From positions 1 to 22,068 of the IMG/VR virus record IMGVR_UViG_3300031219_000012: 22,068 bases of DNA; one strand, given 5' to 3'. Both the position numbers and the translations under genes were made by a program. The notes below the pieces were generated by a model. The model did not search any database and was not told the origin of the DNA. It was given only the letters and a program-made list of their open reading frames with translations. Every line of letters starts with the position of its first letter. Positions within the stretch are counted from its first letter, which is position 1. This stretch comes from a virus. This document shows positions 761-22,068 of the stretch, piece by piece.

Positions 761-1375
761 TTATTTAATAGGACAATTTTTACCAGAGTATATATATCCT
801 TTGTTTCTAGATATATCAACACCAATCGATTTACTAGAAATATAAACATCTTCTAGACATTCAGTATCAGAACCACCTACTATAACATATCTTCTATACT
901 TATCATTACTTAGTCTTTTATATAGTTTTTTAGGGATTTGAAACCATTTATGATTATTTCCAATATATACAATTGCAGTTCCTTTAGTTGTTTTGAACAT
1001 TTCACCCTTAATTAGTTTATCATTACTTTCTTTTTTCTTTATGTTATCATAGGTGTTTTTATCTAATATCTTTTTATAATAATCTACACTAACATCATAG
1101 TTATACCTTTTTTCTATAATTTCAGTTTGGTTAGGAAAATGATATAAATCTTGCCCAATATTTATTTCTGGATCATGATCAAATAAATATTCGTTCCCCA
1201 CTTTACCATTTATGTGATTATCCCATATTTGGAACACCTCATCAAATTCATTACAATACTTTTTTAATTCTTTAACATAATTATCAGTAAAATACTTTTT
1301 AAAACTTTTTTGAACATCAACGATTATAAGAATATCATCAGTTCTATTGCTTTCGAATGTATTTATGTATTTCAT
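761..1375 (-). CDS. Isochorismatase/nicotinamidase-fold hydrolase-like protein with head-targeting-like leader
   Basis: A 204-residue protein. After an N-terminal leader (M-K-Y-I-N-T-F-E-S) it shows isochorismatase-superfamily landmarks. I-I-V-D-V-Q-K-S-F at 17-25 puts D20 at the usual catalytic Asp. I-W-D-N-H at 50-54 sits where the family has a D-x-H metal or active-site strand. V-I-V-G-G-S-D-T-E-C at 164-173 puts C173 at the nucleophile position, followed by the helix and 'S-I-G-V-D-I' strand. The fold is fairly clear from these spaced motifs, but the central region is divergent, the substrate is unknown, and the catalytic Lys is only tentatively near K89. Its leader is almost the same as that of the neighbouring gene upstream (starting at 1989), although the rest of the two proteins is unrelated. 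An AATATATAAT element lies 3-4 bases before the start. If the leader targets the capsid, this enzyme would be a candidate injected protein. Confidence 0.6.
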   Translation of the reverse strand: MKYINTFESNRTDDILIIVDVQKSFKKYFTDNYVKELKKYCNEFDEVFQIWDNHINGKVGNEYLFDHDPEINIGQDLYHFPNQTEIIEKRYNYDVSVDYYKKILDKNTYDNIKKKESNDKLIKGEMFKTTKGTAIVYIGNNHKWFQIPKKLYKRLSNDKYRRYVIVGGSDTECLEDVYISSKSIGVDISRNKGYIYSGKNCPIK

Positions 1376-1443: not shown

Positions 1444-1989
1444 TTATATTGGCAAATCTTCATCATCATCTTCCTCTTCCTCTACATCTTCAAACCCTTC
1501 TTCGTCTTGTGCTTGTTGTGTTTGGTCTTGTTGTGTTTGGTCTTCTTCGTCTTGCATTTGTGCTTTGTCAAATCCTTCTTCGTCTTGCATTTGTGTTTCG
1601 TCTTGCATTTGTGTTTCGTCTTGTAGCTCTTCTTGACCACCATCTTCTTGTGTTTGGATTTGAGGTTGTATTTGTACTTGATCACCTTCACTATCACCAC
1701 CTATCAAGGCTCTTGAAGATAGTATGTCATTATCTAAGAACTTTTTAGCAACATGCTTAACTAACTCTTCTGCAATGTCGAAATCGCCAAAAAGTTTCTT
1801 TAAGTCCTCACCTGTTTCATCTTTTACTTTCTTACTATAAGCGTTTATAAGACTTTTAGGAACATCAATAGTTGTTCTAACTTTATATGTATCTTCTACT
1901 TGAAATACATTTTCATTTATATTTGGTGTTTTGTCTTTACTAACTTTCTTATCTGTTCTATGTGATTCGAAATTTTGAATGCGTTTCAT
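1444..1989 (-). CDS. Acidic Q/D/E-repeat protein with head-targeting-like leader
   Basis: A 181-residue protein of unknown function. It starts M-K-R-I-Q-N-F-E-S-H-R-T-D, a leader shared nearly residue for residue with the next gene downstream. Residues 30-95 look like a small folded segment (Y-K-V-R-T-T-I-D-V-P-K-S-L ... E-E-L-V-K-H-V-A-K-K-F-L). From about residue 100 it is a low-complexity tail of Gln, Asp and Glu with repeated units of the type Q-M-Q-D-E, ending in a run of Glu/Asp and L-P-I. The tail is mirrored by G+T-rich repeats on the plus strand at about 1498-1630. Acidic, leader-bearing proteins of this size are reminiscent of prohead core or internal head proteins of T4-like phages, but there is no sequence match that proves it. 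A TAATATATAA element lies at 2011-2020, about 21 bases before the start. Confidence 0.75.
   Translation of the reverse strand: MKRIQNFESHRTDKKVSKDKTPNINENVFQVEDTYKVRTTIDVPKSLINAYSKKVKDETGEDLKKLFGDFDIAEELVKHVAKKFLDNDILSSRALIGGDSEGDQVQIQPQIQTQEDGGQEELQDETQMQDETQMQDEEGFDKAQMQDEEDQTQQDQTQQAQDEEGFEDVEEEEDDDEDLPI
1498..1630. repeat. Degenerate short-unit repeats coding the Q-M-Q-D-E tail
   Basis: Units such as TCGTCTTGCATTTGTGTT recur in tandem within the C-terminal coding part of the acidic protein. At the protein level they read as repeated Q-M-Q-D-E and Q-T-Q-Q-D. Unit spacing is a multiple of three, so expansion or contraction keeps the frame. The strand asymmetry (G+T on plus) makes frames other than the coding one look open too. 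Confidence 0.7.
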
Positions 1990-3825: not shown

Positions 3826-6800
3826 TTACCTGCGTCTTCCATATCCACCACTTGACTTATATTTGCTCTGACCATATCCACCACCAGTTCTAGAACCAAG
3901 TGTTTTTTTCTTCACATCTAAAAAGTGTGTGTAATCATTACTTTCTATATAATCAGATTTTTTCATACACTCATTTATGTAATCAACTATTTCCTTATCA
4001 ACATGTTTGTTCATCCATTCGTGTATCATCTCTGAAAACTCGTTCTTTTCGAATATAGATGTAGCATTTACAATAGTCATGACACAATTATGTACAACTA
4101 TCCCATTTGCTACATAACTATTATCATCCTCTACTTCTAAATTATAAGTTGTTCCAGTATAATTATACTTTTCATTTCTTTGTAGTACTGACGAATATTC
4201 AAAATCAGAAATCTTTCTCATACATGACCTTTCTAAACTATCTTCATAAATAGATACCCAATATTGGCTTTTCGTAGGCTTACCATATCTATGTCTTTTA
4301 TTATAGGATATTACTGCATGTTTGTCTAATGATATAGATATATCTCTCATAGTCAATGCTAGTTGAAAACTAGTTGAACATCCTATATAATGTTTAGTCT
4401 TACCAGGTGTTTCACAGAGCCAACCATCTCCCTTTATCCAATAATCTAGGACTAGGGACATTTTCTCTTTATCTAGTTTGTTATAGAGCATTTCGGGGAA
4501 TATTTTCTCTTTATCTTCATCATAGCATTTAGAAAATATTTCCCATAAGAATCTATTATAAAATATCACAGTAGTGCAATTATTTCTATTCTGTACATGA
4601 TATTTTAAATTCCAGTTATTTATTATATCCTTCATTTCATCAATAAGAGTTAAATCTTTATCATTAAAGGCTAAAGTTATTCGGTAAGTATTATGAGATG
4701 GTTTATAACTGTTACCATCTGCTAAGAATAAGCCTAAAAACTTAGCAAAATTATTATCTAGTTCTATTTCCTTTATTTTAAAATTAGATGACGGAGAATA
4801 TTTATTCCTTTCAAATAATTCTTGATATTTGATATTATTAACATCACCAGTATATAGAGGTGATTTTATAACAACACACCTAGATTTATTAGAAATGTCA
4901 CTTGGTAAAATCCACTCTCGCTTAAGATAATTATTATAATTCTTTCTATTTTTCTTTGAGTAGTCATTTTTTGGAACATATATAGGATGGTTATATGTTA
5001 TATCTAAGCTAGGTTGGCCTCTAAATTTGATTCTGTGCATAACACCATCAAAATCTTTTTTACATATATTTGTTACTGGTTTGTAATTTCCTAAATGTGT
5101 TAACACCAACTCACCTAATTTGATATCTTTTATTCTTTTATAACCATTTATAGTCTTTATAAGAGTGTTTGGCAAAACGCAATCATCGTTTCCATTATCT
5201 GCTGCATATTTTATATTGCCAGAACTAGTTGTATGTTTTACAAATGTGGTTATTTCCCTTATGGTGTCTTCATTATTTATTGAGAAAGATTTACTAAGCA
5301 TTAGAGATTGGTAGTCTTTTATAAGTAAATTTTTTAAACTTGTTACTTTAAGTCCTACCTTTTCTTCTGGTGAATCTATTCTGTGCTTATATCTAACAAA
5401 TACAGAAGAACCATAATCATTAATACCATCAAAAACATGAGGTAGTTCTGCTAGTAATGTATTTCCATAGTTGTTAAGTTCTAAAACTATTTTAAGGTTA
5501 TCTGGATTAAAATATTCAAAAGCTAATATATAAAGCAATTCTGACATTTGTTTAATAGATATTATATTACTTCGATATATCCCAATTTGTTCTAGTTTGA
5601 AAAAATCCTTTATTGATGAATACTTTTCTTTTTGTATATCTATGACCTCTCTACTTTTATTACTTATTCTGAATATGTTTATAACAGAAAAATCTTGACC
5701 TAATCCCTCTGCAAGGTCAATTGATAAGACTATTTTATATTCTTTTCTTTTTATAGGGTTGTATATATCATAATCATCAACCCATTTTAAATTTTCATAG
5801 GAAAAATTTAGCTTATCTTCAAATTCATATATCTCCTCCCACTCATAAAGAATTTTATTATTCAATAAATGGTCTATAATATTTTCACTTAGTAAAGATT
5901 TACTAGCATTTACAAATCTAAGACCGTATTCTTGGTTAAAAGCATCTTCTCCACCAATATCTTTTATTGCCTCATCCTTCCATGTAGTAAGTTCTGCTAA
6001 CTCTAGTATAGATATCTCTTTGCCATCGGGTGTTTTTATATTAAATCCAACAACATCCTCATCATGACAATAATCATTATTATAGACCTCGATTACATAT
6101 TTTTGTAAATCAACACTCCAACTCATTTCGACCTTAGTATCAGCACCCCATTTATTATGTACTTGATTAAAAACATTATCCTTTTCTATTTTGTTTTCGT
6201 ATAATTTATGGTCATTAAGCCTTATATATGTAACAAACCTACCAGGGACTTGGTACCAGTAAACCCTCATAGGTGTGTAGTTATTTCTTTGTGGGTCACC
6301 AGCTGGTCGTTCTGCATTAGTAAGTAATTTATGAAATAAATTCATACCATTTGGTGTAGATGTTATTATTATTTTAGAGTTTTTTATTGCAGATACTGTT
6401 GGAAAAACCGCAGTATAATATGGTTCTATTATGTTTGAAGGAATATGTGCAAATTCATCTAAATAAAGAACATCAATAGTAAAACCAATAGCTGGAGTCT
6501 TTGTCCTAGCAGAGGTCTTAATACGACAACCATTGTCAAATGTCAGTGATTTTTGATTCCATGTTTTTATACCAGGTTTTAAAAAAAATGGTAGTAATGA
6601 ATAAATGGATTTTATCTTGTCAACAATCTCAACTGATGTATCACCCTTGTTAGCAACAATCATAATGTTTTTATCATTATTGAATAGTATTGTATGAAGC
6701 ATAAATATAGAAGCAGATATAGTATTGTGTGAAAGTATTCCATTTGTGTAGAACCTATGATTCTGATGGTCTACCGATAAATCAAACATAGATGATTTAT

Positions 6801-7173
6801 AATCTTCCCTTTTTATATGCTTCACAATACTATTGCCATTTTTGGTCTTTATAGTATCGCCTATTTTTAATTCTTTACAGAATACTTCATCAAAATATTC
6901 ATCAAATAATATATGATTATCTGCACAAGTTAAGCTAAGACCGTCAATAGTTTTGATATTATAATGATTAAATGGTTGTGTTAAATGTATCTCAGATACT
7001 GCCTCATATCCAGTATCAGTCTTTACTCTAATATCTATTAAAGATATAGATTTTAATATTTTTTTAGAAATATCATCCTCATCCAATGATACATTTCTAT
7101 ATTGGTATTTTTCTATCAACTCAATAGATTTTTCTATCAACTCAATCAATATTTTTTTAAGAAGTGTAATCAT
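3826..7173 (-). CDS. terL: Terminase large subunit, C-terminal piece: intein C-fragment + ATPase/nuclease with a second complete intein
   Basis: A 1115-residue precursor. Residues 1-150 are the C-fragment of a split intein ending G-I-L-S-H-N. T151 begins the terminase and completes the Walker A motif left in the other gene. Residues 151-664 closely follow T4 gp17: Walker B V-L-Y-L-D-E (235-240), coupling motif I-T-S-T-P-N-G (270-276), nuclease acidic residues D486 (S-I-D-L-A-E-G-L-G-Q-D), E565 (V-L-E-L-N) and the G-N-D-D at 661-664. Residues 665-1029 are a second intein, and 1030-1115 finish the nuclease domain (V-M-T-I-V) plus a Gly/Tyr/Arg tail G-G-Y-G-R-R-R. Excising both inteins and joining to the 117-residue N-piece gives about 717 residues, against 610 for T4 gp17. 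The mature enzyme is the ATP-driven DNA packaging motor and headful nuclease, docked on the portal. The start is 17 bases after the homing endonuclease stop and lacks a Shine-Dalgarno motif. Confidence 0.93.
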   Translation of the reverse strand: MITLLKKILIELIEKSIELIEKYQYRNVSLDEDDISKKILKSISLIDIRVKTDTGYEAVSEIHLTQPFNHYNIKTIDGLSLTCADNHILFDEYFDEVFCKELKIGDTIKTKNGNSIVKHIKREDYKSSMFDLSVDHQNHRFYTNGILSHNTISASIFMLHTILFNNDKNIMIVANKGDTSVEIVDKIKSIYSLLPFFLKPGIKTWNQKSLTFDNGCRIKTSARTKTPAIGFTIDVLYLDEFAHIPSNIIEPYYTAVFPTVSAIKNSKIIITSTPNGMNLFHKLLTNAERPAGDPQRNNYTPMRVYWYQVPGRFVTYIRLNDHKLYENKIEKDNVFNQVHNKWGADTKVEMSWSVDLQKYVIEVYNNDYCHDEDVVGFNIKTPDGKEISILELAELTTWKDEAIKDIGGEDAFNQEYGLRFVNASKSLLSENIIDHLLNNKILYEWEEIYEFEDKLNFSYENLKWVDDYDIYNPIKRKEYKIVLSIDLAEGLGQDFSVINIFRISNKSREVIDIQKEKYSSIKDFFKLEQIGIYRSNIISIKQMSELLYILAFEYFNPDNLKIVLELNNYGNTLLAELPHVFDGINDYGSSVFVRYKHRIDSPEEKVGLKVTSLKNLLIKDYQSLMLSKSFSINNEDTIREITTFVKHTTSSGNIKYAADNGNDDCVLPNTLIKTINGYKRIKDIKLGELVLTHLGNYKPVTNICKKDFDGVMHRIKFRGQPSLDITYNHPIYVPKNDYSKKNRKNYNNYLKREWILPSDISNKSRCVVIKSPLYTGDVNNIKYQELFERNKYSPSSNFKIKEIELDNNFAKFLGLFLADGNSYKPSHNTYRITLAFNDKDLTLIDEMKDIINNWNLKYHVQNRNNCTTVIFYNRFLWEIFSKCYDEDKEKIFPEMLYNKLDKEKMSLVLDYWIKGDGWLCETPGKTKHYIGCSTSFQLALTMRDISISLDKHAVISYNKRHRYGKPTKSQYWVSIYEDSLERSCMRKISDFEYSSVLQRNEKYNYTGTTYNLEVEDDNSYVANGIVVHNCVMTIVNATSIFEKNEFSEMIHEWMNKHVDKEIVDYINECMKKSDYIESNDYTHFLDVKKKTLGSRTGGGYGQSKYKSSGGYGRRR
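4087..5181 (-). other. Contiguous intein with LAGLIDADG homing endonuclease in TerL nuclease domain
   Basis: Encodes residues 665-1029 of the C-terminal TerL precursor (365 residues). Block A begins C-V-L-P-N-T-L-I. Block B holds D-I-T-Y-N-H-P with the T-x-x-H pair. Two dodecapeptides, F-L-G-L-F-L-A-D-G near 812-820 and V-L-D-Y-W-I-K-G-D-G near 908-917, mark a LAGLIDADG (DOD) endonuclease. Block F is Y-N-L-E-V-E-D-D-N-S-Y-V-A-N-G, and block G is V-V-H-N followed by Cys+1. All splicing residues (C1, penultimate His, terminal Asn, Cys+1) are present, so it should be splice-competent. The insertion lies directly after the D-D pair that carries the last catalytic aspartate of the RNase H-like nuclease. 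Confidence 0.95.
6724..7173 (-). other. Split-intein C-fragment (IntC, 150 residues) of TerL
   Basis: Residues 1-150 of the C-terminal TerL precursor. It starts with a highly helical Leu/Ile/Lys/Glu segment (1-26) containing a tandem E-L-I-E-K-S-I-E-L-I-E-K. Intein block B follows (T-I-D-G-L-S-L-T-C-A-D-N-H), then K-E-L-K-I-G-D-T-I and the block F segment M-F-D-L-S-V-D-H-Q-N-H-R-F-Y-T-N-G. Block G is I-L-S-H-N, then Thr+1. The break is therefore between blocks A and B, not at the usual endonuclease position between B and F. This matches the atypical split known from the AceL-TerL type of intein, which also sits in a terminase gene. The helical extension is additional. Confidence 0.9.
7106..7145. 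repeat. Tandem 27-base-scale repeat coding L-I-E-K-S-I-E-L-I-E-K
   Basis: TTTTTCTATCAACTCAAT occurs twice in tandem inside the start of the IntC coding region and encodes two copies of I-E-L-I-E-K. It keeps the frame and extends the helix at the intein split site, suggesting that the extension grew by local duplication. Confidence 0.65.
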
Positions 7174-7190
7174 TTTTTTATTATTTTTAT

Positions 7191-8186
7191 CTATACATTA
7201 TTTAAAAAATCTATACATTTTTTAATAGTTAAATCTTTTTTGCTTTTATATTCAGTATCCCATATTATTAGAATATCAAATCCTTTTGATTTAGCAATAT
7301 TTATTTTTAAATTATCTTTATCCCATATTTCCCTTGCAGTAGGTCCACTTTCTTTATAGAAAGGATGTGGATAATCGTTCTCTTTGAAAGTTTTAGGATT
7401 TGCATGGTATAAATCACCATTGTATTCGATAATTTTCATTCTTTTTCTATCAGTGAAGTCATATGAGAAAAATCCTACATCTTTAACTGATATAAAGAAC
7501 TCTTTATTTTTTATTGCATAGTGTACACGTTTTAGTTCATTATCTGTATAAATCTTACTTATCTTTTTAAATAAGTCTTGTGATATTTCAGAATAGCCAC
7601 ATTTCATATTACCATTTTCTGCCAAATTTTTCTGCCAAAGTGTTTGTCTATCTAGCCATCTTTTCTTACCACCAACATCACCATGTTTTTCTACACATTT
7701 TTTTAGAGAAAATGTACTTTGTCTTTCGCTAAGCATCTTTTTAGATGTTTCCTCATCATAACCTTTCAGTAAATAGTATTCTAAAGTAGTATCTGATATT
7801 CTATCCTTAATAGCTTCCTTTGCAAAAATACTTATATGCTCCTCTATATTCTCTACACCTTCATATTTTGAAAAATTCTTTGAAAATGGACTTCTTGATT
7901 TTCTTTCTAATTCAGTTGTATTTTTTTTGTGATTAGGATTTTTTGTGCCTCTTATTTTTTCAGCAAACATTTTTTTATACTTTTCTTTCTTCATATGCTT
8001 ACCACCATTAATTGTTGTCTTAGCCTTATCTGATAATGCCATTATAGGAGCACCTTCGTACAATTCTTTATATTCTTTAGTAGTCATGTTATTATGTGCA
8101 AATTTTAAATGCTTTCCATATATTCTTTTGCATTGCTCACCACATATTCTACATGTTACCGTTTCTTTATTGTCATTTATTATCAT
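7191..8186 (-). CDS. Free-standing homing endonuclease, Vsr/EDxHD-type, lodged between the two terL pieces
   Basis: A 331-residue protein. The N-terminus carries a zinc finger (C12, C15, H26, H31) followed by M-T-T-K-E-Y-K-E-L-Y, the DNA-binding module often found in phage homing endonucleases. Two F-x-L-K-K-C-V-E-K-H-G-D-x-G-G-K-K-R-W-like elements lie mid-protein (about 160-180). The C-terminal 100 residues have a very-short-patch-repair-like PD-(D/E)XK layout: D243, then I-I-E-Y-N-G-D-L-Y-H-A-N-P (E254, D258, H261), W289-D-K-D-N-L-K, and I-L-I-I-W-D-T-E-Y at 305-313. This family was described in 'fractured genes', where a homing endonuclease separates two halves of a split-intein gene, exactly the arrangement here. 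Its predicted target is the intein-free terL site. It has its own TATATATAAAAG-like element at about 8216-8229, suggesting independent expression. Confidence 0.88.
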   Translation of the reverse strand: MIINDNKETVTCRICGEQCKRIYGKHLKFAHNNMTTKEYKELYEGAPIMALSDKAKTTINGGKHMKKEKYKKMFAEKIRGTKNPNHKKNTTELERKSRSPFSKNFSKYEGVENIEEHISIFAKEAIKDRISDTTLEYYLLKGYDEETSKKMLSERQSTFSLKKCVEKHGDVGGKKRWLDRQTLWQKNLAENGNMKCGYSEISQDLFKKISKIYTDNELKRVHYAIKNKEFFISVKDVGFFSYDFTDRKRMKIIEYNGDLYHANPKTFKENDYPHPFYKESGPTAREIWDKDNLKINIAKSKGFDILIIWDTEYKSKKDLTIKKCIDFLNNV

Positions 8187-8257
8187 AATTTTATTTTGTT
8201 TTCTTTTTATATGCTTTTATATATAAAAAGTTGTTGGCTTCCTATCAAATAGGTAAA

Positions 8258-8773
8258 TTATTTTTCTAACAGGAATAAAATATCATATAATTTTATTTTT
8301 ATTTTTTCTAATAATGTTAGTGATCTTTCTTGTTTAAGCATATGATAATATAGTTTACCAATTCTATATTCTTTTCTAATTTCCTTGCTCTTAATTTCGC
8401 ATAAAGTGTTGAAGGTCAAGCACTTACCCACCTGCCTACTAGCCATTAATATATTGAATCGATTATCAACAAAATTATCTAATATGTCAGCTTGGTAGTC
8501 TCTAAGTGTTATTGCTCCAATAGAACCATCTTCTCTTTTCACCTTACAGTATTTTTCGGTAAAATGGTGTATATCTAGTGCACATTTAACGTATTCTCCT
8601 TGTTCGGCACTTGTCATCTTAAATGTAAGACCTGATCTTCTTAACCCTATTTCATTTTTAAGCCATGGGTTTTGAAACCTTTTTAGTACTATACCATCAT
8701 TTATCTTATCAGTAGCCTCGGTAACGTTCTCACTACTAAATACCATTTGTCTTTCTTTCTTAATCTTTGCCAT
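8258..8773 (-). CDS. terL: Terminase large subunit, N-terminal piece fused to intein N-fragment
   Basis: A 171-residue protein. Residues 1-117 are the N-terminal part of a T4 gp17-type terminase: W-L-K-N at 37-40, the adenine-binding region T-L-R-D-Y-Q-A-D-I-L at 89-98, and the beginning of Walker A, A-S-R-Q-V-G-K, at 111-117 (compare S-R-Q-L-G-K-T in T4). Residue C118 opens an intein N-fragment. Joining K117 to T151 of the other product restores S-R-Q-V-G-K-T followed by a gp17-like sequence (I-x-x-x-I-F-x-x-H), which confirms the pairing. Alone, this fragment cannot bind ATP properly. The start at 8773 lies across a 42-base divergent gap from the candidate small terminase gene, with a shared TATATATATTATA box in between. 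Confidence 0.93.
   Translation of the reverse strand: MAKIKKERQMVFSSENVTEATDKINDGIVLKRFQNPWLKNEIGLRRSGLTFKMTSAEQGEYVKCALDIHHFTEKYCKVKREDGSIGAITLRDYQADILDNFVDNRFNILMASRQVGKCLTFNTLCEIKSKEIRKEYRIGKLYYHMLKQERSLTLLEKIKIKLYDILFLLEK
8261..8422 (-). other. Split-intein N-fragment (IntN, 54 residues) of TerL
   Basis: Residues 118-171 of the N-terminal TerL product. Block A is C-L-T-F-N-T-L-C-E-I-K-S, with Cys1 as the splicing nucleophile. It is followed by K-E-Y-R-I-G-K-L-Y-Y-H-M-L-K, comparable with the first helix of AceL-TerL-type N-fragments, and then by an extra helical tail of about 22 residues ending at the stop codon. That tail (T-L-L-E-K-I-K-I-K-L) resembles the first residues of the C-fragment (T-L-L-K-K-I-L-I-E-L). 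Block B is absent here and present in the partner, so the split is of the atypical, early kind. Confidence 0.88.
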
Positions 8774-12123: not shown

Positions 12124-14388
12124 ATGAAATACCTAAAAAGAAAAAATACATACTTAAGTGAAGCATTTGACATGTCAGGTGGATCATCAGGACCATTGGG
12201 CAATGACATAAATTGGGGAGATTCATTAGTGGGTAGAATGTTCAATTCTATAGCTAGGAGATTTACAGTTAATTATAATGTTAATAGGATTGAGGCAATA
12301 GCTAAAGGCATAGATAGTGAATTTGAAATATTGTTAGCATCTGGTGTTATAGAGGGAAGTGAGCAAGAAGATGAATTTAACTTTTTTAAAATATCATTTT
12401 TATTGGGTAAGCTAAAAGAAATAATTGACAATGAAGAGTCTATAAGTAAAATAAAAGAAAATGTAGAGAACCTTTTAGATTATATATCTGAAATGGATGA
12501 ATTTAAGAACGATAGAGCTAGTATTAAAAAAGAATTAGAAGAAAGTCTTCTTAATTTTGAAGAATATTTAAAAGATATTAAAAGTGATTCTACTAATGAT
12601 GATGGGGATAAAGATGAAACTGAAACTGAAACTGAAAGCGATGATTCAGAGGAAGAAACAGATTTAGATCATCAAGAGGTGGTTAAATTAATAGACATAA
12701 TAACCGATATACTAGAGAGGGCAGAAGAACTTGAAGAAGAATATAAAAATGTTCCTAGAGTACCTAGCGTATCTAATAAAGTTAGTGATGAAGATGCAGC
12801 TATAGAAGGTATGTCAAGAGAACACAAACAGTACATTAAGCTAAGTAAGCAGATACAAGAACTAGTATCAGAAGAAAATGGCATTAAGCTAGATAAAAAT
12901 TTTCTAACAAATCTAAAAAAACTATATAGTGATGGCAAATCTAAAAAATACTGGATTGACTTAGGAAGAAAGCTTCAATTAGCATACAAAAAATTTAGCA
13001 ATAAATTTAATGAAAGTGCTGATATAGATTCTAGTGAAAGTGAAAGGGTGTCTATAGCTAGTAAGATATCAAATTTTGCTAAAAAATTAATGGGCATACC
13101 AGAAACAGAACTAGATGGCGACTTTGGTAGTTCTATTAAGAAGTTTAATAAGTTATTTAAGAGAATAGTTGATACAGGCATAGATTCTAAAAACGAGAGC
13201 AAAATAATTAAATATAATGCCTTTATGAAGGTATATGAAAAATCTACGAATGGGAAAGAAATTCAAAAATTCTTTTATAAAAACGTAGTATTAGATAATT
13301 GGATTGTTGACAAGAGTAAGGCTGATGATATTAAAGATATTGTTGAGAATTCTACAAAAGATATTAAAAAAATTGAAATAGATCCAATATTAAGCATAGT
13401 AAAGCTGTTTAACAAGGCTTTTAAGGTTTATACAACACAAACTATACCTTCTGGTAGAAGTGGTGGTAAAGTCTCTAATAATGTGTTTAGAAGGTATACT
13501 AATTTAGGATCTAATGCAGGAACTCCAGATAATCCTGGTGGTGGACCATTTATAATAAACAAAGTATTCAATAAATTTGAGGATAAGATACAGAATATTA
13601 TTAGGGATAATAAATATAAAGCTTTATTTGATAAAGATACTGAAATAGAATTGGGTGATGGTAGAAGGGTTAAAGGTGGTGGTAAAATACTTCTTAGTTT
13701 TATACAGAAACTTCTAGATGGGGAGAAGCTTTATAAAGGAAATGCTCAAAGTGAATTTTTTAAAGAATACTTTGGAATAGATGTAATACCTAAGAAAATA
13801 GGATCTGACAACATAACAGTTGGTAAAGATAATGAAGACTCACAAGATAGTGATAAAACTACTGTTAAAGATAATACACAAGTTGATAAAGAAGTAATAG
13901 ACACTTATTTTGAAGAGGTTAGTAAAATAACTGATACAGAAGGAACAATATATGGTATGTTGTTAGGAAAGCAATTAATGTTTTACCTTATTGTTATTAA
14001 AGTGGAGGATGAAGATGTGTATGTTAAGTATTCAGAAACATTTTTAAACTTTTCTAAATACTTAGACCAAGACTATAATATTAAAGCTGGTAAGATAAAA
14101 AATGTTGAATTAAGACCTAAACCAATGTTTTTTGGTAAGATGGATAGAGATTTATTTGATATAACTCCTGGTTCTGATATTAAAGTAGCAGCAGTTAATA
14201 TTGATATGTTTAACACAAATAATGAAAGAACTATAGCTAAAAACTTTAAAGACTTGAAAGATGTTAGGAATATATTTCAATTAGTTGATAATAATAAAGA
14301 ACCCATCAAGTTCACTGACTTAGAGAAAACAGCATTTGGACCAATGGATTCTAAAAACTATAAAGATTTAAAAGAAAAATTTAAATGA
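12124..14388 (+). CDS. Large acidic protein with head-targeting-like leader, possible internal virion protein
   Basis: A 754-residue protein I cannot assign to a family. It begins M-K-Y-L-K-R-K-N-T-Y-L-S-E-A, where L-S-E fits the L-x-E cleavage signature of T4 prohead protease leaders. A Gly-rich stretch follows at 18-36 (G-G-S-S-G-P-L-G-N-D-I-N-W-G-D). Residues 50-150 are helical. An acidic low-complexity stretch with repeated E-T lies at about 154-180, and a long helical or coiled-coil middle runs from 185 to 430. There is another Gly-rich linker near 460-480. The last 200 residues look more globular, with strands such as L-M-F-Y-L-I-V-I-K-V and D-V-Y-V-K-Y. Its stop overlaps the next start (ATGA at 14385-14388), so the two products are probably made together. 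Position just before the tail sheath gene suggests a structural or head-associated role; that is inference. Confidence 0.65.
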   Translation: MKYLKRKNTYLSEAFDMSGGSSGPLGNDINWGDSLVGRMFNSIARRFTVNYNVNRIEAIAKGIDSEFEILLASGVIEGSEQEDEFNFFKISFLLGKLKEIIDNEESISKIKENVENLLDYISEMDEFKNDRASIKKELEESLLNFEEYLKDIKSDSTNDDGDKDETETETESDDSEEETDLDHQEVVKLIDIITDILERAEELEEEYKNVPRVPSVSNKVSDEDAAIEGMSREHKQYIKLSKQIQELVSEENGIKLDKNFLTNLKKLYSDGKSKKYWIDLGRKLQLAYKKFSNKFNESADIDSSESERVSIASKISNFAKKLMGIPETELDGDFGSSIKKFNKLFKRIVDTGIDSKNESKIIKYNAFMKVYEKSTNGKEIQKFFYKNVVLDNWIVDKSKADDIKDIVENSTKDIKKIEIDPILSIVKLFNKAFKVYTTQTIPSGRSGGKVSNNVFRRYTNLGSNAGTPDNPGGGPFIINKVFNKFEDKIQNIIRDNKYKALFDKDTEIELGDGRRVKGGGKILLSFIQKLLDGEKLYKGNAQSEFFKEYFGIDVIPKKIGSDNITVGKDNEDSQDSDKTTVKDNTQVDKEVIDTYFEEVSKITDTEGTIYGMLLGKQLMFYLIVIKVEDEDVYVKYSETFLNFSKYLDQDYNIKAGKIKNVELRPKPMFFGKMDRDLFDITPGSDIKVAAVNIDMFNTNNERTIAKNFKDLKDVRNIFQLVDNNKEPIKFTDLEKTAFGPMDSKNYKDLKEKFK

Positions 14389-14909
14389 AACATTTAAAAA
14401 AGTATAAACTATTCTTAGAAGATTTTGAAGTTGAGGATAGTGATAGTGAAGATGTTAAACTATCTAAAGAAAAATTAGACAGAGTAAAGACACAAATATC
14501 ATATTATAACTCTAATAAATCAAAAATAGATAAAATTTATCAAGATTTAGAAAATGGTAGTATTAAAGATGATTTAGATAAGGTAATTGGGACTGATAAA
14601 GATACAAATCCATTTCTAGTTAGCTACTCTAGTATAGCTAGTATAACTAGAAGTATTGAGAAGTTAAAAAAGAGAGAAACTGATAAATCGATAGAAAAAA
14701 ATGAGCTAAAGGATAGACTATCAGATGCTAGTGATGATATCTCAAAAGATATAAGTGATAGAATAAGCAAAGTCAATGATCAAATAATTAAAATTAAAAA
14801 AGATATTAATGATGCTAGTAAAAAATTACCTGTATTAGAGAAAAGTCACAAAGAGAAAATGGATAATATAGAACAAGATATTAAAGATTGGATATCTAAA
14901 ATTAAATAG
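14385..14909 (+). CDS. Coiled-coil protein with head-targeting-like leader
   Basis: A 174-residue, strongly charged protein. The leader is M-K-H-L-K-K-Y-K-L-F-L-E-D-F, the same M-K-H-[LI]-K-x-Y-K type as the leucine-rich-repeat genes at the right end. The remainder is nearly all helix, with a break near residues 70-82 (D-K-D-T-N-P-F-L-V-S-Y-S-S) and coiled-coil heptads at 83-160 (K-L-K-K-R-E-T-D, I-S-D-R-I-S-K-V-N-D-Q-I-I-K-I-K-K-D). It overlaps the 754-residue gene by four bases, indicating translational coupling and possibly a stoichiometric complex. No enzymatic motif is visible. A weak A/T inverted repeat at 14926-14942 follows the stop. Confidence 0.65.
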   Translation: MKHLKKYKLFLEDFEVEDSDSEDVKLSKEKLDRVKTQISYYNSNKSKIDKIYQDLENGSIKDDLDKVIGTDKDTNPFLVSYSSIASITRSIEKLKKRETDKSIEKNELKDRLSDASDDISKDISDRISKVNDQIIKIKKDINDASKKLPVLEKSHKEKMDNIEQDIKDWISKIK

Positions 14910-18578: not shown

Positions 18579-20279
18579 ATGATAAGCAAAGATTTCTTAT
18601 ATAATTATAAATTTGATAATAAGTCTGGTAAAATGTCTATGGAAAAGTATGTTTCAAAGAACTTTTTTGATGATTATACATACATAGTCAAATATTGTGA
18701 AGATAATAATATAAATCATCTATGTTTTAAAGAAAAGGTATATCATGTTATAAATGATATAAAGACAGATGTCATTTGTGTCAATGAGTTGTGTGATAAT
18801 CTAGTAAAATTTAAAAACTCATCTATGGGGTACTATGATTACTGTTCTAACAAATGTATAGGTAGTGATGATAAAATAAAAAAGAAAAAAGAAAACACCA
18901 ATTTAAAAAAATTTGGACATAAACACGCAGCACATAGTGAGCATGCTAAGGCAATAACTTCAAAAAAATATGAAAACCGAACAAATTCTTATAAAAAAAG
19001 TATCTTAAATAAGAGGATAAAAACACTAAATGATAGGTATGGTGTTAATAATGTAGCAAGTATAGATGGTCTTTTAGAAAGAAGAGTCGAGTCTTTTAAG
19101 AAAAATATAGATGCATACAAAGCATCATATAAAAAAACATCCCTTGATAGATATGGTGTAGACCATCCTTGGAAAAATGAAAAAATACACAAAAAAAGCA
19201 TTCTCAATTCAAAAATCACTAAAAATGAAAACTTGTATAAAAAAGTACTAGATAAAATACACACATATGATAACATACACTTTATTAGTATAGATTATCA
19301 CACTAGAGTAATAAGCCTACATTGCGATGTGTGTAATGAAGAGTTTAATATACATAGAGAATATTTGCATAACAGACAAAGTGTGGATAATGTAATATGT
19401 ACAAAATGCAATCCAGTCAGTAGTAATATATCTGGTCTAGAGAAGGATTTAAAAATATATATAGAGAGCATATATGACGATTTAATAATTGAAAATGATA
19501 GAAAAGTTTTAGGTGGCAAGGAACTAGATATATATTTACCAAATTCTAACATAGCATTTGAGTTTAATGGACTATATTGGCACAGTGAGATTAATAAAGC
19601 TAAGAAATACCATTATGATAAGACAAATATGTGCTTGAGTAAAGGTGTGTACCTTATGCATATATGGGAAGATGACTGGATATTGAGGAAAGATATAATA
19701 AAATCTATCATATCATATAAGCTCAAGAAAACAATAGGTTCTATATATGCTAGGAAGTGTCTAATTAAAACAGTCAACATAGAAGATAGTAGAATATTTA
19801 TGGATAATAATCATATACAGGGATATTCTAATTCTAATATAAAATTAGGTCTATATCACAAAGATACCTTAGTATCACTTATGTGTTTCTCTAGACCAAG
19901 GGGTGGATCTGATAATGAATATGAATTAATTAGGTTTTGTAATCTATTAAAAACAAATGTTGTTGGTGGTGCTAGTAAACTATTCAATTATTTATTAAAA
20001 CAGTATAGTGTTAGCAGTGTTATCTCATTTTCAGACACCTCTATGTTCGATGGCTCATTATATGAAAAATTGGGATTTGAACATACTAAAAATGTACCAA
20101 TCGATTACAAATGGATTATTGGAAATAGAAGGTGTCATAAATCTAAGTATAGAAAATCACAGCTTATAAAAATGGGTTATGATATAGATAAATCTGAAAA
20201 GGAAATAATGTATGAAGATGTTATAAGTTATAGAATATGGGACTGTGGGAAGGTCAAGTGGATTTATAAAACGCTATAG
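18579..20279 (+). CDS. Free-standing homing endonuclease, zinc-finger plus Vsr-like nuclease domain
   Basis: A 566-residue protein. The N-terminal part has a four-cysteine zinc site (C67, C72, C89, C93). Two or more repeated elements of the type K-K-F-G, D-R-Y-G-V-N-N and D-R-Y-G-V-D-H lie at about 110-200; such elements recur in phage homing endonucleases. A second zinc ribbon follows (C249, C252, C274, C277). The nuclease domain spans about 285-385: E-L-D-I-Y-L-P (D317), I-A-F-E-F-N-G-L-Y-W-H-S-E (E328, H335), Y-H-Y-D-K-T-N-M-C and L-M-H-I-W-E-D-D-W. This is a Vsr-like PD-(D/E)XK layout. A C-terminal domain (390-566) with A-R-K-C, N-H-I-Q-G-Y-S and V-V-G-G-A-S-K-L-F resembles the GNAT-like tail that often accompanies this nuclease. 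The gene sits between the sheath terminator and the repeat-protein array and is probably an intergenic mobile element. Confidence 0.82.
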   Translation: MISKDFLYNYKFDNKSGKMSMEKYVSKNFFDDYTYIVKYCEDNNINHLCFKEKVYHVINDIKTDVICVNELCDNLVKFKNSSMGYYDYCSNKCIGSDDKIKKKKENTNLKKFGHKHAAHSEHAKAITSKKYENRTNSYKKSILNKRIKTLNDRYGVNNVASIDGLLERRVESFKKNIDAYKASYKKTSLDRYGVDHPWKNEKIHKKSILNSKITKNENLYKKVLDKIHTYDNIHFISIDYHTRVISLHCDVCNEEFNIHREYLHNRQSVDNVICTKCNPVSSNISGLEKDLKIYIESIYDDLIIENDRKVLGGKELDIYLPNSNIAFEFNGLYWHSEINKAKKYHYDKTNMCLSKGVYLMHIWEDDWILRKDIIKSIISYKLKKTIGSIYARKCLIKTVNIEDSRIFMDNNHIQGYSNSNIKLGLYHKDTLVSLMCFSRPRGGSDNEYELIRFCNLLKTNVVGGASKLFNYLLKQYSVSSVISFSDTSMFDGSLYEKLGFEHTKNVPIDYKWIIGNRRCHKSKYRKSQLIKMGYDIDKSEKEIMYEDVISYRIWDCGKVKWIYKTL

Positions 20280-20324: not shown

Positions 20325-21062
20325 ATGAAACATATAAAACCTTACAAAATATTCGAGAATGCTAGTCCTAACTTCCCAACTACAAGGGATGAAGTTATAG
20401 AAGTGTGTAAAAAATATGATATAGAAAACTACACTATTAATGATGATTTAAGCATTGATGTTGCTGGTGGTGTTAATCTAGCTTATAAAAATTTAGAACA
20501 CCTACCACTAAAATTTAATTATGTGAGTGGGAATTTCCTTTGCCGTATTAATAAACTAAAATCCTTGGAAGGTTGTCCTAGAACAGTAAATGGTAGTTTC
20601 TTTTGTAATGATAATGAATTAAAGACATTAGAAGGTAGCCCACAAACAATAGATGGTGATTTTCATTGCTTTAATAATGAATTAAAGACATTAGAAGGTA
20701 GCCCACAAACAATAGGTGGTGATTTTCTTTGTTATGAAAATGAATTAAAATCTTTTGAAGGTTCTCCACAAACAGTAGGTGGTGGTTTTTATTGTGCTGA
20801 TAATGAATTAAGAGATTTAGAATACTTCCCAGAAGTAGATGGTAGTACAAATATGATAGAAAATCCAGTAAATCTATTAGTATATACCTTTATCTATTTA
20901 CCAGAAGCTAATAATTTCCTCATAGAATATTTCAATGACTATGAAATAGTTAGAAACAGAGATACTGTTATGCTAGATAGATTACAAACATTCATAAGGG
21001 ATAATAATTTAAAGATGCCTGACTTAGATGAAATAAAAAAACACTATAAAATAATAGAATAA
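20325..21062 (+). CDS. Leucine-rich-repeat protein, array copy 1, with head-targeting-like leader
   Basis: A 245-residue protein. Leader M-K-H-I-K-P-Y-K-I-F-E (I-F-E fits the hydrophobic-x-E pattern) and a conserved N-terminal region (N-F-P-T-T-R-D-E-V-I-E-V-C ... Y-T-I-N-D-D-L-S-I) precede the repeats. Residues 60-165 hold LRR-like units of 21 residues: L-K-T-L-E-G-S-P-Q-T-I-x-G-D-F-x-C-x-x-N-E. At DNA level the units repeat every 63 bases (starting near 20616, 20679 and 20742), with almost identical sequence between the first two. The C-terminal 70 residues (Y-E-I-V-R-N-R-D-T-V-M-L-D-R-L-Q-T-F-I) are shared with copy 2. LRR surfaces bind proteins; the target is unknown. If the leader directs packaging, the protein would be delivered into the host. 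Confidence 0.8.
   Translation: MKHIKPYKIFENASPNFPTTRDEVIEVCKKYDIENYTINDDLSIDVAGGVNLAYKNLEHLPLKFNYVSGNFLCRINKLKSLEGCPRTVNGSFFCNDNELKTLEGSPQTIDGDFHCFNNELKTLEGSPQTIGGDFLCYENELKSFEGSPQTVGGGFYCADNELRDLEYFPEVDGSTNMIENPVNLLVYTFIYLPEANNFLIEYFNDYEIVRNRDTVMLDRLQTFIRDNNLKMPDLDEIKKHYKIIE
20616..20804 (+). repeat. 63-base tandem units coding LRRs in copy 1
   Basis: Three successive 63-base units start with GAATTAA; units 1 and 2 share an almost identical first half (AAGACATTAGAAGGTAGCCC). The unit length equals 21 codons, so unit number can change without frameshift. Confidence 0.8.
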
Positions 21063-21064
21063 AT

Positions 21065-21802
21065 ATGAAACATATAAAACCTTATAAAATATTCGAGAGT
21101 ACAAGTCTTAACTTCCCAACTACAAGAGAGGAAGTTATAGAAGTGTGTGAAAAGTATGGAATAAATAACTACACTATTAATGATGATTTAAGTATTAGTG
21201 TTGAGGACATCATTGATTTATCACATACTGGTTTAGAATATATACCACTTAGATTTAATTATGTGAGTGGTTATTTTAATTGTTCGTATAATAAATTAAA
21301 AACACTAGAAGGTTGTCCAGAAAAAATGGGTGGAACTTTTAACTGTTCTTTTAATCAATTAAAAACATTAGAAGGTTGTCCACAAACAATAGATGGTGCT
21401 TTCTTTTCTTCATATAATAAATTAAAAACATTAGAAGGTAGCCCACAAACAGTAGGTGGTCATTTTAACTGTTCTTTTAATGATATAGAAACATTGAGAG
21501 GATGTCCTCTAGTAGTAAATGCTAATTTTTTATGTGATGATAATGAATTAAAAGACTTAGATTATTTCCCTGAAGTAAGTGGTGGTATATATATACAAGA
21601 TAATCCTGTATGTTTATTAATATATACTTTCATTTATAAACGAGAAACTGATAGTTTTCTCATAGAGGATTTTGTAGATTATGAAATAGTTAGAAACAGA
21701 GATACTGTTATGTTAGATAGGCTTCAGACCTTCATTAGGGATAACGATTTAGAAATGCCTGACTTGGAGGACATTATAAAACACTATAAAATAATAGAAT
21801 AG
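21065..21802 (+). CDS. Leucine-rich-repeat protein, array copy 2, with head-targeting-like leader
   Basis: A 245-residue paralogue of copy 1, two bases downstream of it. The leader is identical for 11 residues (M-K-H-I-K-P-Y-K-I-F-E), and the N-terminal and C-terminal regions are strongly conserved (V-R-N-R-D-T-V-M-L-D-R-L-Q-T-F-I-R-D-N). The LRR units differ more, with C-S-F-N-Q-L-K-T-L-E-G-C-P and S-S-Y-N-K-L-K-T-L-E-G-S-P. Overall length equals copy 1, although individual units have diverged. The same units in different order suggest recombination between copies. The gene is in the same transcript as its neighbours. Confidence 0.8.
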   Translation: MKHIKPYKIFESTSLNFPTTREEVIEVCEKYGINNYTINDDLSISVEDIIDLSHTGLEYIPLRFNYVSGYFNCSYNKLKTLEGCPEKMGGTFNCSFNQLKTLEGCPQTIDGAFFSSYNKLKTLEGSPQTVGGHFNCSFNDIETLRGCPLVVNANFLCDDNELKDLDYFPEVSGGIYIQDNPVCLLIYTFIYKRETDSFLIEDFVDYEIVRNRDTVMLDRLQTFIRDNDLEMPDLEDIIKHYKIIE

Positions 21803-21803
21803 A

Positions 21804-22068
21804 ATGAAACATATAAAACACTATAAAATATTCGAGAGTACAAGTCCTAACTCCCCAACTACAAGAGAAGAAGTTATAAAGGTATGTAGAAGATATAAAA
21901 TATATAGCTACACTATTAATGATGATTTAAGTATTGATGTTGATGGTGATGTTGAATTATATAGTAAAAATTTAGAATACTTACCGCTTAAATTTAATTA
22001 TGTAAATGGTTATTTTAATTGTGATTATAACAACTTAAAAACATTAGAAGGGTGTCCACAAACGGTAG
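21804..22068 (+). CDS. Leucine-rich-repeat protein, array copy 3, cut by window end
   Basis: Starts one base after copy 2 and runs open for 88 codons to the window edge, so its 3' end is not seen. Translation gives M-K-H-I-K-H-Y-K-I-F-E-S-T, then N-S-P-T-T-R-E-E-V-I-K-V-C and the first LRR units (L-K-T-L-E-G-C-P-Q-T-V). It is clearly a third paralogue; further copies may follow beyond the window. Confidence 0.78.
   Translation, partial: MKHIKHYKIFESTSPNSPTTREEVIKVCRRYKIYSYTINDDLSIDVDGDVELYSKNLEYLPLKFNYVNGYFNCDYNNLKTLEGCPQTV

What the first reader, a model, noticed from the sequence alone, without database searches (positions are those of the whole stretch)
3826..8773. Large terminase gene fractured by a split intein and interrupted by a second intein, each at a catalytic motif
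Seen directly: the N-piece ends A-S-R-Q-V-G-K then Cys; the partner reads H-N then T-I-S-A-S-I-F. Joined, they give S-R-Q-V-G-K-T, the gp17 Walker A. The second intein splits G-N-D-D from C-V-M-T-I-V at the last nuclease acidic residue. Known: inteins favour conserved active-site codons, and split inteins in phage TerL exist. Inferred: packaging ATPase is off until trans-splicing, and nuclease until cis-splicing, so motor activity could be timed by splicing. Two inteins of different type in one terminase gene is uncommon.
Basis: partly seen in the sequence, partly recalled or inferred. Interest (0 to 1): 0.85.

Follow-up and report, generated by a model that had tools for sequence, protein, structure and literature searches.

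The report
Phage packaging-motor gene in two pieces
A virus of bacteria has its DNA-packaging motor gene cut into two separate genes by one self-removing protein element and interrupted again by a second, so the working motor should form only after the pieces stitch themselves together; the kind of arrangement is known, but this version shows unusually clear signs of parasite-like movement between related viruses.

Summary
Observation confirmed. On the minus strand the T4-type large terminase is encoded as an N-piece (extein to ...SRQVGK, then a 54-aa IntN) and a C-piece (150-aa IntC, then T-ISAS...); a 365-aa LAGLIDADG intein sits between GNDD and CVMT. Of the 80 relatives examined, 63 have an exactly empty Walker A site and 73 an exactly empty nuclease site. 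The split lies between blocks A and B ('atypical', like AceL/GOS-TerL), but both halves carry conserved extra segments not seen in this family's gp46-like members. Nearly identical phages carry a quite different split intein at the same codon, around a shared endonuclease N-terminus: homing or allele swap. A 99%-identical 201-kb relative has one TerL and further split inteins in gp41 and, threefold, in NrdA. Trans- plus cis-splicing of TerL, maintained by endonuclease homing, is best supported; splicing-timed packaging is untested and has no support here. Fractured genes, split TerL inteins and two-intein TerLs are published, so this is a new variant of a known kind.

The parts
8423..8773 (-). 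N-extein: TerL aa 1-117, ending in Walker A ...MASRQVGK
   Evidence: PHROGs terminase large subunit; abuts the middle extein exactly in 63 of 80 relatives
8258..8422 (-). IntN, 54 aa (CLTFNTLCEIK...LTLLEKIKIKLYDILFLLEK) plus stop; holds block A only
   Evidence: dN/dS 0.03-0.32 in the 6 of 7 family-matched pairs where dS could be computed
7191..8186 (-). Free-standing homing endonuclease gene, 331 aa: CxxC..HxxxxH N-terminal module and VSR/EDxHD-type nuclease C-terminal domain
   Evidence: A4 alignment; 3r3p I-Bth0305I by sequence E 0.0014; fold Z 11.8/10.8 to Vsr, 10.3 to 3r3p; ROS_MUCR below its cut-off
6724..7173 (-). IntC, 150 aa: N-terminal extension, block B (CADNH), block F, ends GILSHN
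   Evidence: VidaL 6vgv E 2.2e-11, gp41-1, CatC
5182..6723 (-). Middle extein: TerL from Thr of GK|T to GNDD (514 aa, most of ATPase and nuclease domains)
4087..5181 (-). Second, contiguous intein (365 aa), class-1 motifs, two LAGLIDADG-like motifs, ends VVHN, +1 Cys
   Evidence: Pfam Intein_splicing 1.3e-15; exact 1095-bp absence in L005; homologs L089 53%, L090 42% at the same DD|C junction
3826..4086 (-). C-extein: CVMTIV... (86 aa) plus stop; end of TerL

Best explanation
A T4-type terL gene was invaded by two mobile inteins at two catalytic motifs. The first is a naturally and atypically split intein at GK|T of Walker A. N-piece and C-piece are translated separately; IntN and IntC associate into a Hint domain, and Cys1, the block B His, the penultimate His, Asn150 and Thr+1 carry out trans-splicing. 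The second, contiguous intein excises itself in cis at DD|C. The product would be a 717-aa TerL (117+514+86). The endonuclease gene between the pieces is proposed to cut intein-less (or differently occupied) terL alleles in co-infecting phages and so spread the split cassette; the LAGLIDADG intein is proposed to do the same for its own site. Shown: anatomy, homology, empty and occupied alleles, purifying selection, co-inheritance of the halves, allele swap. Inferred: splicing, endonuclease cleavage, the role of the extra segments at the split. Regulation is not needed to explain anything seen.
For: Exact empty sites in 63 of 80 relatives (site 1) and 73 of 80 (site 2), with C, T or S already at the +1 position. 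Of the 80 IntC relatives kept from 108, recognised an N-side in 68: 65 split, 3 (L140-L142, identical) contiguous; in 12 none was recognised. IntC matches solved inteins, and the model of the contiguous homolog L140 gives VidaL Z 15.3 over 108 residues. IntN and IntC distances correlate beyond extein distances: partial r 0.49, 0 of 2000 permutations as high, 46 distinct pairs. Endonuclease C-terminus resembles Vsr and I-Bth0305I. Window vs L005 in 75-base bins: flanks and exteins 0.89-1.00 (all but one bin 0.93 or more), IntN 0.48-0.59, endonuclease first half 0.92-1.00, its rest plus most of IntC 0.51-0.79, second intein cleanly absent. A second swap pair: L105/L125 (extein 96%, IntC 66%). 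One TerL in a 201-kb near-identical contig.
Against: No splicing, cleavage or transcript was tested. Block B has Ala where the usual TxxH has Thr, though Ala is invariant in the 39 rows of A6 and present in VidaL. Eight of the 65 split loci have a gap under 300 bp, so no room for an endonuclease gene, and in L098 the endonuclease frame is broken, so the endonuclease is dispensable for the split state. The window and the 201-kb record may be incomplete, so another terL copy is not fully excluded. The N-terminal half of the endonuclease model has low confidence.
Confidence: 0.86

Rival explanations
1. Splicing-timed motor: the inteins are kept because slow or conditional splicing delays ATPase and nuclease activity until capsids are ready.
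For: Both insertions interrupt catalytic motifs. Published work proposes inteins in P-loop ATPases as sensors (PMC5050341 passages), and two inteins of one DnaB as differently responsive to stress (PMC6195587, title and start of abstract).
Against: 63 of 80 relatives lack the first and 73 of 80 the second insert. Alleles with about 52% identical IntC swap in 99%-identical phages. In the near-identical 201-kb relative the split-intein load extends to NrdA and gp41.
Confidence: 0.08
2. RNA-level interruption: the pieces are joined by a group I intron or frameshift rather than by protein splicing.
For: Group I introns do occur in this lineage: RF00028, 57.5 bits, E 4.1e-14, in NrdA of the 201-kb relative.
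Against: No Rfam match in the window or in focused searches of both inserts. Both halves carry conserved intein motifs under purifying selection.
Confidence: 0.02
3. Decaying locus: a dead split intein in a defective phage, with TerL lost or replaced.
For: A fragment genome cannot show replication.
Against: The pieces are intact in several near-identical contigs; low dN/dS; only one TerL in the 201-kb contig.
Confidence: 0.03

Closest known systems
Fractured genes: split inteins flanking a free-standing homing endonuclease (Dassa et al. 2009, NAR 37:2560; not held; known here by title, citations in papers seen, and recall)
   Same: Two gene pieces with IntN/IntC and an EDxHD/VSR-like endonuclease gene between them (recalled)
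   Different: Here the host gene is terL at Walker A, the split is between blocks A and B, and a second, contiguous intein is in the same gene; whether that paper includes such a terL could not be checked
AceL-TerL / GOS-TerL / Cat-TerL atypically split inteins (passages of PMC11766414 and PMC13014065)
   Same: Phage TerL intein split after the first helix, before block B
   Different: Natural atypical IntN are given as 15-37 aa; here 54 aa with a conserved extra segment, and IntC has one too; insertion site relative to AceL not tested (recalled as different)
VidaL intein (6vgv)
   Same: Best solved relative of IntC by sequence and fold; shares Ala in block B
   Different: Split at S1, right after the second strand (PMC13014065 passage); no counterpart of the extra segment in the aligned range
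TerL with two inteins in a crAss-like Delta phage (PMC7886860 passage)
   Same: Two inteins in one TerL
   Different: There three in-frame fragments separated by two inteins; here one intein is split across two ORFs with an endonuclease gene
Mycobacteriophage TerL inteins, seven sites (PMC5050341 passages)
   Same: Inteins at TerL functional motifs; splicing and homing cleavage shown for some
   Different: All seven lie in the ATPase domain; our second intein lies in the nuclease domain; none described as split in the passages seen
MIJ3 PolB split intein with HNH endonuclease ORF between (PMC6892783 passage)
   Same: Jumbo-phage gene in two ORFs, split intein, endonuclease between
   Different: Block B lies in the N-terminal region there; different gene and endonuclease class

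Membership tests
Class 1 intein (first insert) | Cys/Ser at position 1, block B His, penultimate His, terminal Asn, C/S/T at +1 | tested here: met
   C1, CADNH...SHN|T in window; block B His, penultimate His and Asn invariant in A1 and A6
Class 1 intein (first insert) | Hint fold | tested here: met
   Model of contiguous homolog L140, residues 94-203: VidaL Z 15.3, rmsd 2.1, 108 aligned; N-terminal part of that model is low confidence, and no model of the window's own pair was made
Class 1 intein (first insert) | Splicing activity | not testable with these tools
   needs expression
Naturally split intein / fractured gene | Halves on separate ORFs, each with its extein, exteins together match intact relatives | tested here: met
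Naturally split intein / fractured gene | Free-standing endonuclease gene between halves | tested here: met
   8186-7191; a forward ORF of about 320 aa or more fills the gap in 49 of the 65 split loci (48 in the stricter recount); not every one was identified as an endonuclease
Atypical (S2) split TerL inteins such as AceL/GOS | Split after first helix and before block B | tested here: met
   IntN has block A and IGKLYYHML only; block B is in IntC; S2 definition from PMC13014065 passage
Atypical (S2) split TerL inteins such as AceL/GOS | Short IntN, 15-37 aa | tested here: not met
   54 aa; 46-69 aa in the split TerL loci except L136 (27)
VSR/EDxHD homing endonuclease | VSR-like catalytic core | tested here: met
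   Z 11.8/10.8 (1cw0/1vsr), 10.3 (3r3p); most 10-residue blocks from 201 on have pLDDT 80-94; sequence E 0.0014 to 3r3p
VSR/EDxHD homing endonuclease | Site-specific cleavage of the empty allele | not testable with these tools
   needs cleavage assay
LAGLIDADG intein (second insert) | Intein blocks plus two LAGLIDADG motifs | tested here: met
   Pfam Intein_splicing 1.3e-15 above cut-off, weak LAGLIDADG_WhiA 0.015 below cut-off; FLGLFLADG and LDYWIKGDG read by eye
T4-type terminase large subunit | Terminase_6N ATPase and RNase H-like nuclease matching gp17 | tested here: met
   Terminase_6N 4.5e-14; empty relative L010 vs gp17 E 4.2e-48, nuclease part weak but alignable

The most novel reading that the evidence does not exclude
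The conserved extra segments at the two broken ends of the intein form a dedicated pairing module that makes the split permanent and allele-specific. Type A and type B halves would pair only with their own kind, so the endonuclease cassette can replace one split-intein allele by another as a unit, and mixed co-infections would fail to make TerL unless the whole cassette is converted: a selfish element protected by the incompatibility of its halves.
Probability: 0.2. Interest if true: 0.75.

Novelty: new variant of a known kind. Interest (0 to 1): 0.52.

Why it matters
It gives a natural series at one codon of one essential gene: empty, contiguous, split without endonuclease, split with a forward endonuclease, split with a reverse endonuclease of another family, and two allelic intein lineages swapped in near-identical phages. 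That makes two open questions testable by comparison and simple assays: how inteins become split and stay split, and whether free-standing endonucleases mobilise split inteins. It also offers long-ended, possibly orthogonal atypical split inteins for protein ligation, and a caution for annotation, since terL is a standard phage marker and here looks like two partial genes plus a nuclease.

Tried and rejected
Group I or other RNA element as the cause of the break: none in the window at gathering or in focused searches. A 22-kb search had missed the NrdA intron that a 451-base search found, so the focused searches matter.

Second terL: in G001 the middle-extein query gave one match at E up to 0.01. 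The phrog_2 profile gave the two pieces of terL and a weak hit at 116544 in the NrdA region; that profile also rings in 13 of 14 control genomes, so its weak hits mean little. A different record, G002, has a second weak TerL-like match (34%), not followed.

Intein profile PF14890 over G001 gave 7 matches, none over its cut-off, although the window's C-piece passes it (58 bits); split inteins are poorly seen by it, so intein counts in G001 are lower bounds.

Aligning IntN rows to the contiguous L140 intein: MAFFT put IntN in the wrong place, so IntN rows were dropped and the model was made with L140 plus 38 IntC rows. Its first 11 residues have pLDDT under 50 and the IntN strands are not formed, so whether the extra segment is a hairpin or one long helix (model: helix 35-77) is not settled.

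Re-fusion versus ancestral contiguity of L140: its IntC is sister to split L166 (99/98), which favours re-fusion, but the deep forks are open.

PDB search with the second intein alone gave nothing strong (best E 0.099). Pfam gave no family for the three endonuclease ORFs of the NrdA locus; the GIY-YIG label there is by eye. Dassa 2009 and the GOS-TerL paper are not held, so prior description of this exact TerL site could not be checked. Literature searches; in their listings and in the passages seen I found no split intein at TerL Walker A combined with a second intein at the nuclease motif.
Full report
What is there. The window is a 22,068-base virus record. On the minus strand, 8773-8258 encodes 117 aa of terminase ending MASRQVGK, then Cys and a 54-aa IntN; 7173-3826 encodes a 150-aa IntC ending GILSHN, then Thr and 514 aa of terminase to GNDD, a 365-aa intein, and the last 86 aa from CVMTIV. 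Between the two pieces, on the same strand, lies a 331-aa ORF (8186-7191), with 71 bases before it and 17 after it. Pfam finds Terminase_6N (4.5e-14) and Intein_splicing (1.3e-15) in the C-piece and nothing in the N-piece; PHROGs find terminase large subunit in both. An intact relative (L010, 704 aa) aligns with T4 gp17 through Walker A and, weakly, through the nuclease, with HDD-LVM of gp17 opposite HDD-CVM; that this is the third catalytic acid of gp17 is recalled.

Empty and occupied sites. In the 80 IMG/VR loci kept from 208 relatives of the middle extein, the Walker A site is empty in 63, occupied in 15 and cut or unread in 2; the nuclease site is empty in 73, occupied in 5 and cut in 2 (recount). 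Several of these loci are near-copies. At the 73 empty nuclease sites the next residue is C (43), T (24) or S (6), the residues an intein needs at +1. The two loci cut at the nuclease site (L006, L007) end six bases past the insertion point, as an assembly would if that population were mixed for the insert (inference). A distant phage, L089 (middle extein 45-47%), carries an IntC homolog ending SHN|T, the tail of a VSR-type endonuclease gene upstream, and a homolog of the second intein at DD|C; its N-piece lies beyond the contig, so its split is likely but not seen. L090 carries a homolog of the second intein at the same junction plus, by eye, a different intein in its ATPase domain. Between window and L089 the second intein (55%) is more alike than the middle extein (47%).

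Kind of split. Block A and the first helix (RIGKLYYHML) are in IntN; block B (CADNH), F and G are in IntC. This is the S2 type of atypical split given for AceL and GOS TerL (PMC13014065 passage). The same passages give 15-37 aa for natural atypical IntN; here it is 54, and in the split TerL loci it is 46-69 except L136 (27). The additional length is a conserved segment (..LTLLEKIKIKLYDILFLLE) mirrored by one at the start of IntC (..LIELIEKYEYRN.SLDEDDISKKIL). Members of the same intein family in an SbcC/gp46-like gene (L168-L170; AAA_23 at E 0.0003, below its cut-off) lack it and have IntN of 31-40 aa. One terminase (L140-L142, identical) has an unsplit 203-aa intein at the same codon, with such a segment inside. 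The model of that intein gives a Hint fold for residues 94-203 (VidaL Z 15.3, rmsd 2.1, 108 aligned) and a helix for residues 35-77; its N-terminal end is low confidence. Its IntC is sister to a split one, L166 (99/98), which hints at re-fusion.

The halves belong together. Of the 80 IntC loci, 63 had all four parts readable, giving 46 distinct IntN/IntC pairs; IntN and IntC distances correlate after removing extein distances (partial r 0.49; 0 of 2000 permutations as high). Over 7 family-matched pairs, dN/dS where it could be computed was 0.03-0.32 for IntN, 0.12-0.28 for IntC and 0.12-0.34 for the endonuclease, against 0.06-0.12 for the exteins; 5 comparisons were saturated, and with dS often above 1 these are rough. 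The window-L005 pair compares two different alleles and was read apart (0.40-0.52 for the insert parts); window-L089 gave 0.34 (middle extein) and 0.28 (second intein).

The endonuclease. In an alignment of 20, C12, C15, H26 and H31 of the N-terminal module and E254 and H261 of the C-terminal domain are invariant. The C-terminal domain comes in two forms behind a conserved N-terminus, as if the nuclease module had been exchanged. The profile finds the catalytic domain of I-Bth0305I (3r3p, E 0.0014); the model's C-terminal part matches Vsr (Z 11.8 and 10.8), 3hrl (10.6) and 3r3p (10.3), with two mitoribosome chains close behind at 9.8 and 9.2 and the next row at 7.4. The N-terminal half of the model is low confidence.

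Mobility. Window and L005 were compared in 75-base bins. Flanks and exteins are 0.89-1.00 identical, all bins but one 0.93 or more, right up to the splice junctions. Inside, IntN is 0.48-0.59, the first half of the endonuclease 0.92-1.00, its second half and most of IntC 0.51-0.79, the end of IntC near-identical, and the second intein is absent to the base. L006 and L007 share the L005 allele. One search, on 77 of the 80 IntC loci, found 19 pairs with exteins over 93% and IntC under 75% identical; they reduce to this event and a second one, L105/L125 (extein 96%, IntC 66%). Of the 65 split loci, 49 have a forward ORF of about 320 aa or more in the gap (48 in the stricter recount), 5 a reverse ORF of about 575 aa, 8 a gap under 300 bp; the rest have a broken forward frame (L098, L136) or a long gap without one clear gene (L167). 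These loci overlap with those and several are near-copies. L119, L120 and L151 have the reverse gene where L121, with an identical IntN, has a 47-base gap. The reverse genes of L104, L106, L119, L120 and L151 are 37-40% identical to the window's own free-standing 566-aa endonuclease at 18579-20279.

Genome context. Contig IMGVR_UViG_3300028374_000002 (201,264 bases; G001) has the same fractured terL (99%) and one TerL only. It also holds a DnaB-type (gp41-like) helicase split at its Walker A (MAQTNGGK|C... / ...GILSHN|S...), IntN 37 aa, with a 78-base gap and no endonuclease gene (DnaB_C 4e-14). Its NrdA is in four polypeptide pieces that match Ribonuc_red_lgC positions 1-72, 75-213, 190-392 and 391-514 in turn, with three split inteins and an endonuclease-like ORF in each gap ([quoted passage not shown]). 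The 566-aa endonuclease family gave 14 matches there, some of them fragments of one gene. This load on unrelated genes is what a mobile-element reading predicts. [quoted passage not shown] fragmented nrdD in Jug phages (PMC12363816 passages).

How it most likely works. Trans-splicing at Walker A and cis-splicing at the nuclease motif would rebuild a 717-aa TerL; until then neither piece has a whole Walker A. Homing by the free-standing endonuclease and by the LAGLIDADG intein explains the presence-absence pattern and the swaps. Splicing and cleavage themselves are inferred. A timing role is possible, as argued for other inteins (PMC5050341 passages; PMC6195587 start of abstract), but nothing here favours it.

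Known or new. Fractured genes with split inteins and endonuclease genes (Dassa 2009, cited in several papers seen; not read), atypically split TerL inteins, TerL with two inteins, a jumbo-phage polymerase with split intein plus endonuclease and mycobacteriophage TerL inteins are known. New to the extent that I could check: the combination in one terL, the nuclease-motif site, the long conserved ends at the split, and the allele swap around a shared endonuclease N-terminus. I call it a new variant of a known kind.

Noticed in passing
L231:2205-9687 (G001:110000-122000), 99%-TerL-identical relative: NrdA is in four polypeptide pieces with three split inteins, an endonuclease-like ORF in each gap (two match the VSR-type profile; the third looks GIY-YIG by eye, no Pfam match), plus a group I intron (RF00028, E 4.1e-14) between GGGK and KRKGS: three trans-splicing events and one RNA splicing for one enzyme.
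   Followed up: partly
L240:3718-4446 and L231:25-1185: DnaB-type helicase of the same relative is split at its Walker A by a short-IntN (37 aa) intein whose IntC matches the A1 profile (E 2.7e-21), with no endonuclease gene in the 78-base gap.
   Followed up: partly
window 18579-20279 (+): 566-aa free-standing endonuclease (phrog_3339, E 3e-105); its family gave 14 matches in the 201-kb relative, and relatives lie in reverse inside the split-terL gap of other phages.
   Followed up: partly
L140-L142, 203-aa intein at TerL Walker A: Contiguous version of the split intein with the extra segment inside; nearest relative by IntC (L166) is split, hinting at natural re-fusion.
   Followed up: partly
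window 761-1375 and 1444-1989 (-), 12124-14388, 14385-14909, 20325-21062, 21065-21802, 21804-22067 (+): Several otherwise different proteins begin with a similar leader (MKHIKPYKIFE, MKYINTFES, MKRIQNFES, MKHLKKYKLF). Recalled T4 capsid-targeting sequences look similar; possibly head-packaged proteins.
   Followed up: no
window 20325-22067 (+): Three tandem paralogs with leucine-rich-like repeats (LKTLEGCPQTI...), the last cut by the contig end.
   Followed up: no
L212 (G002:182871-183389): A second, weak TerL-like match (34% over aa 5-183) in a 276-kb relative that also has a split terL (L126).
   Followed up: no
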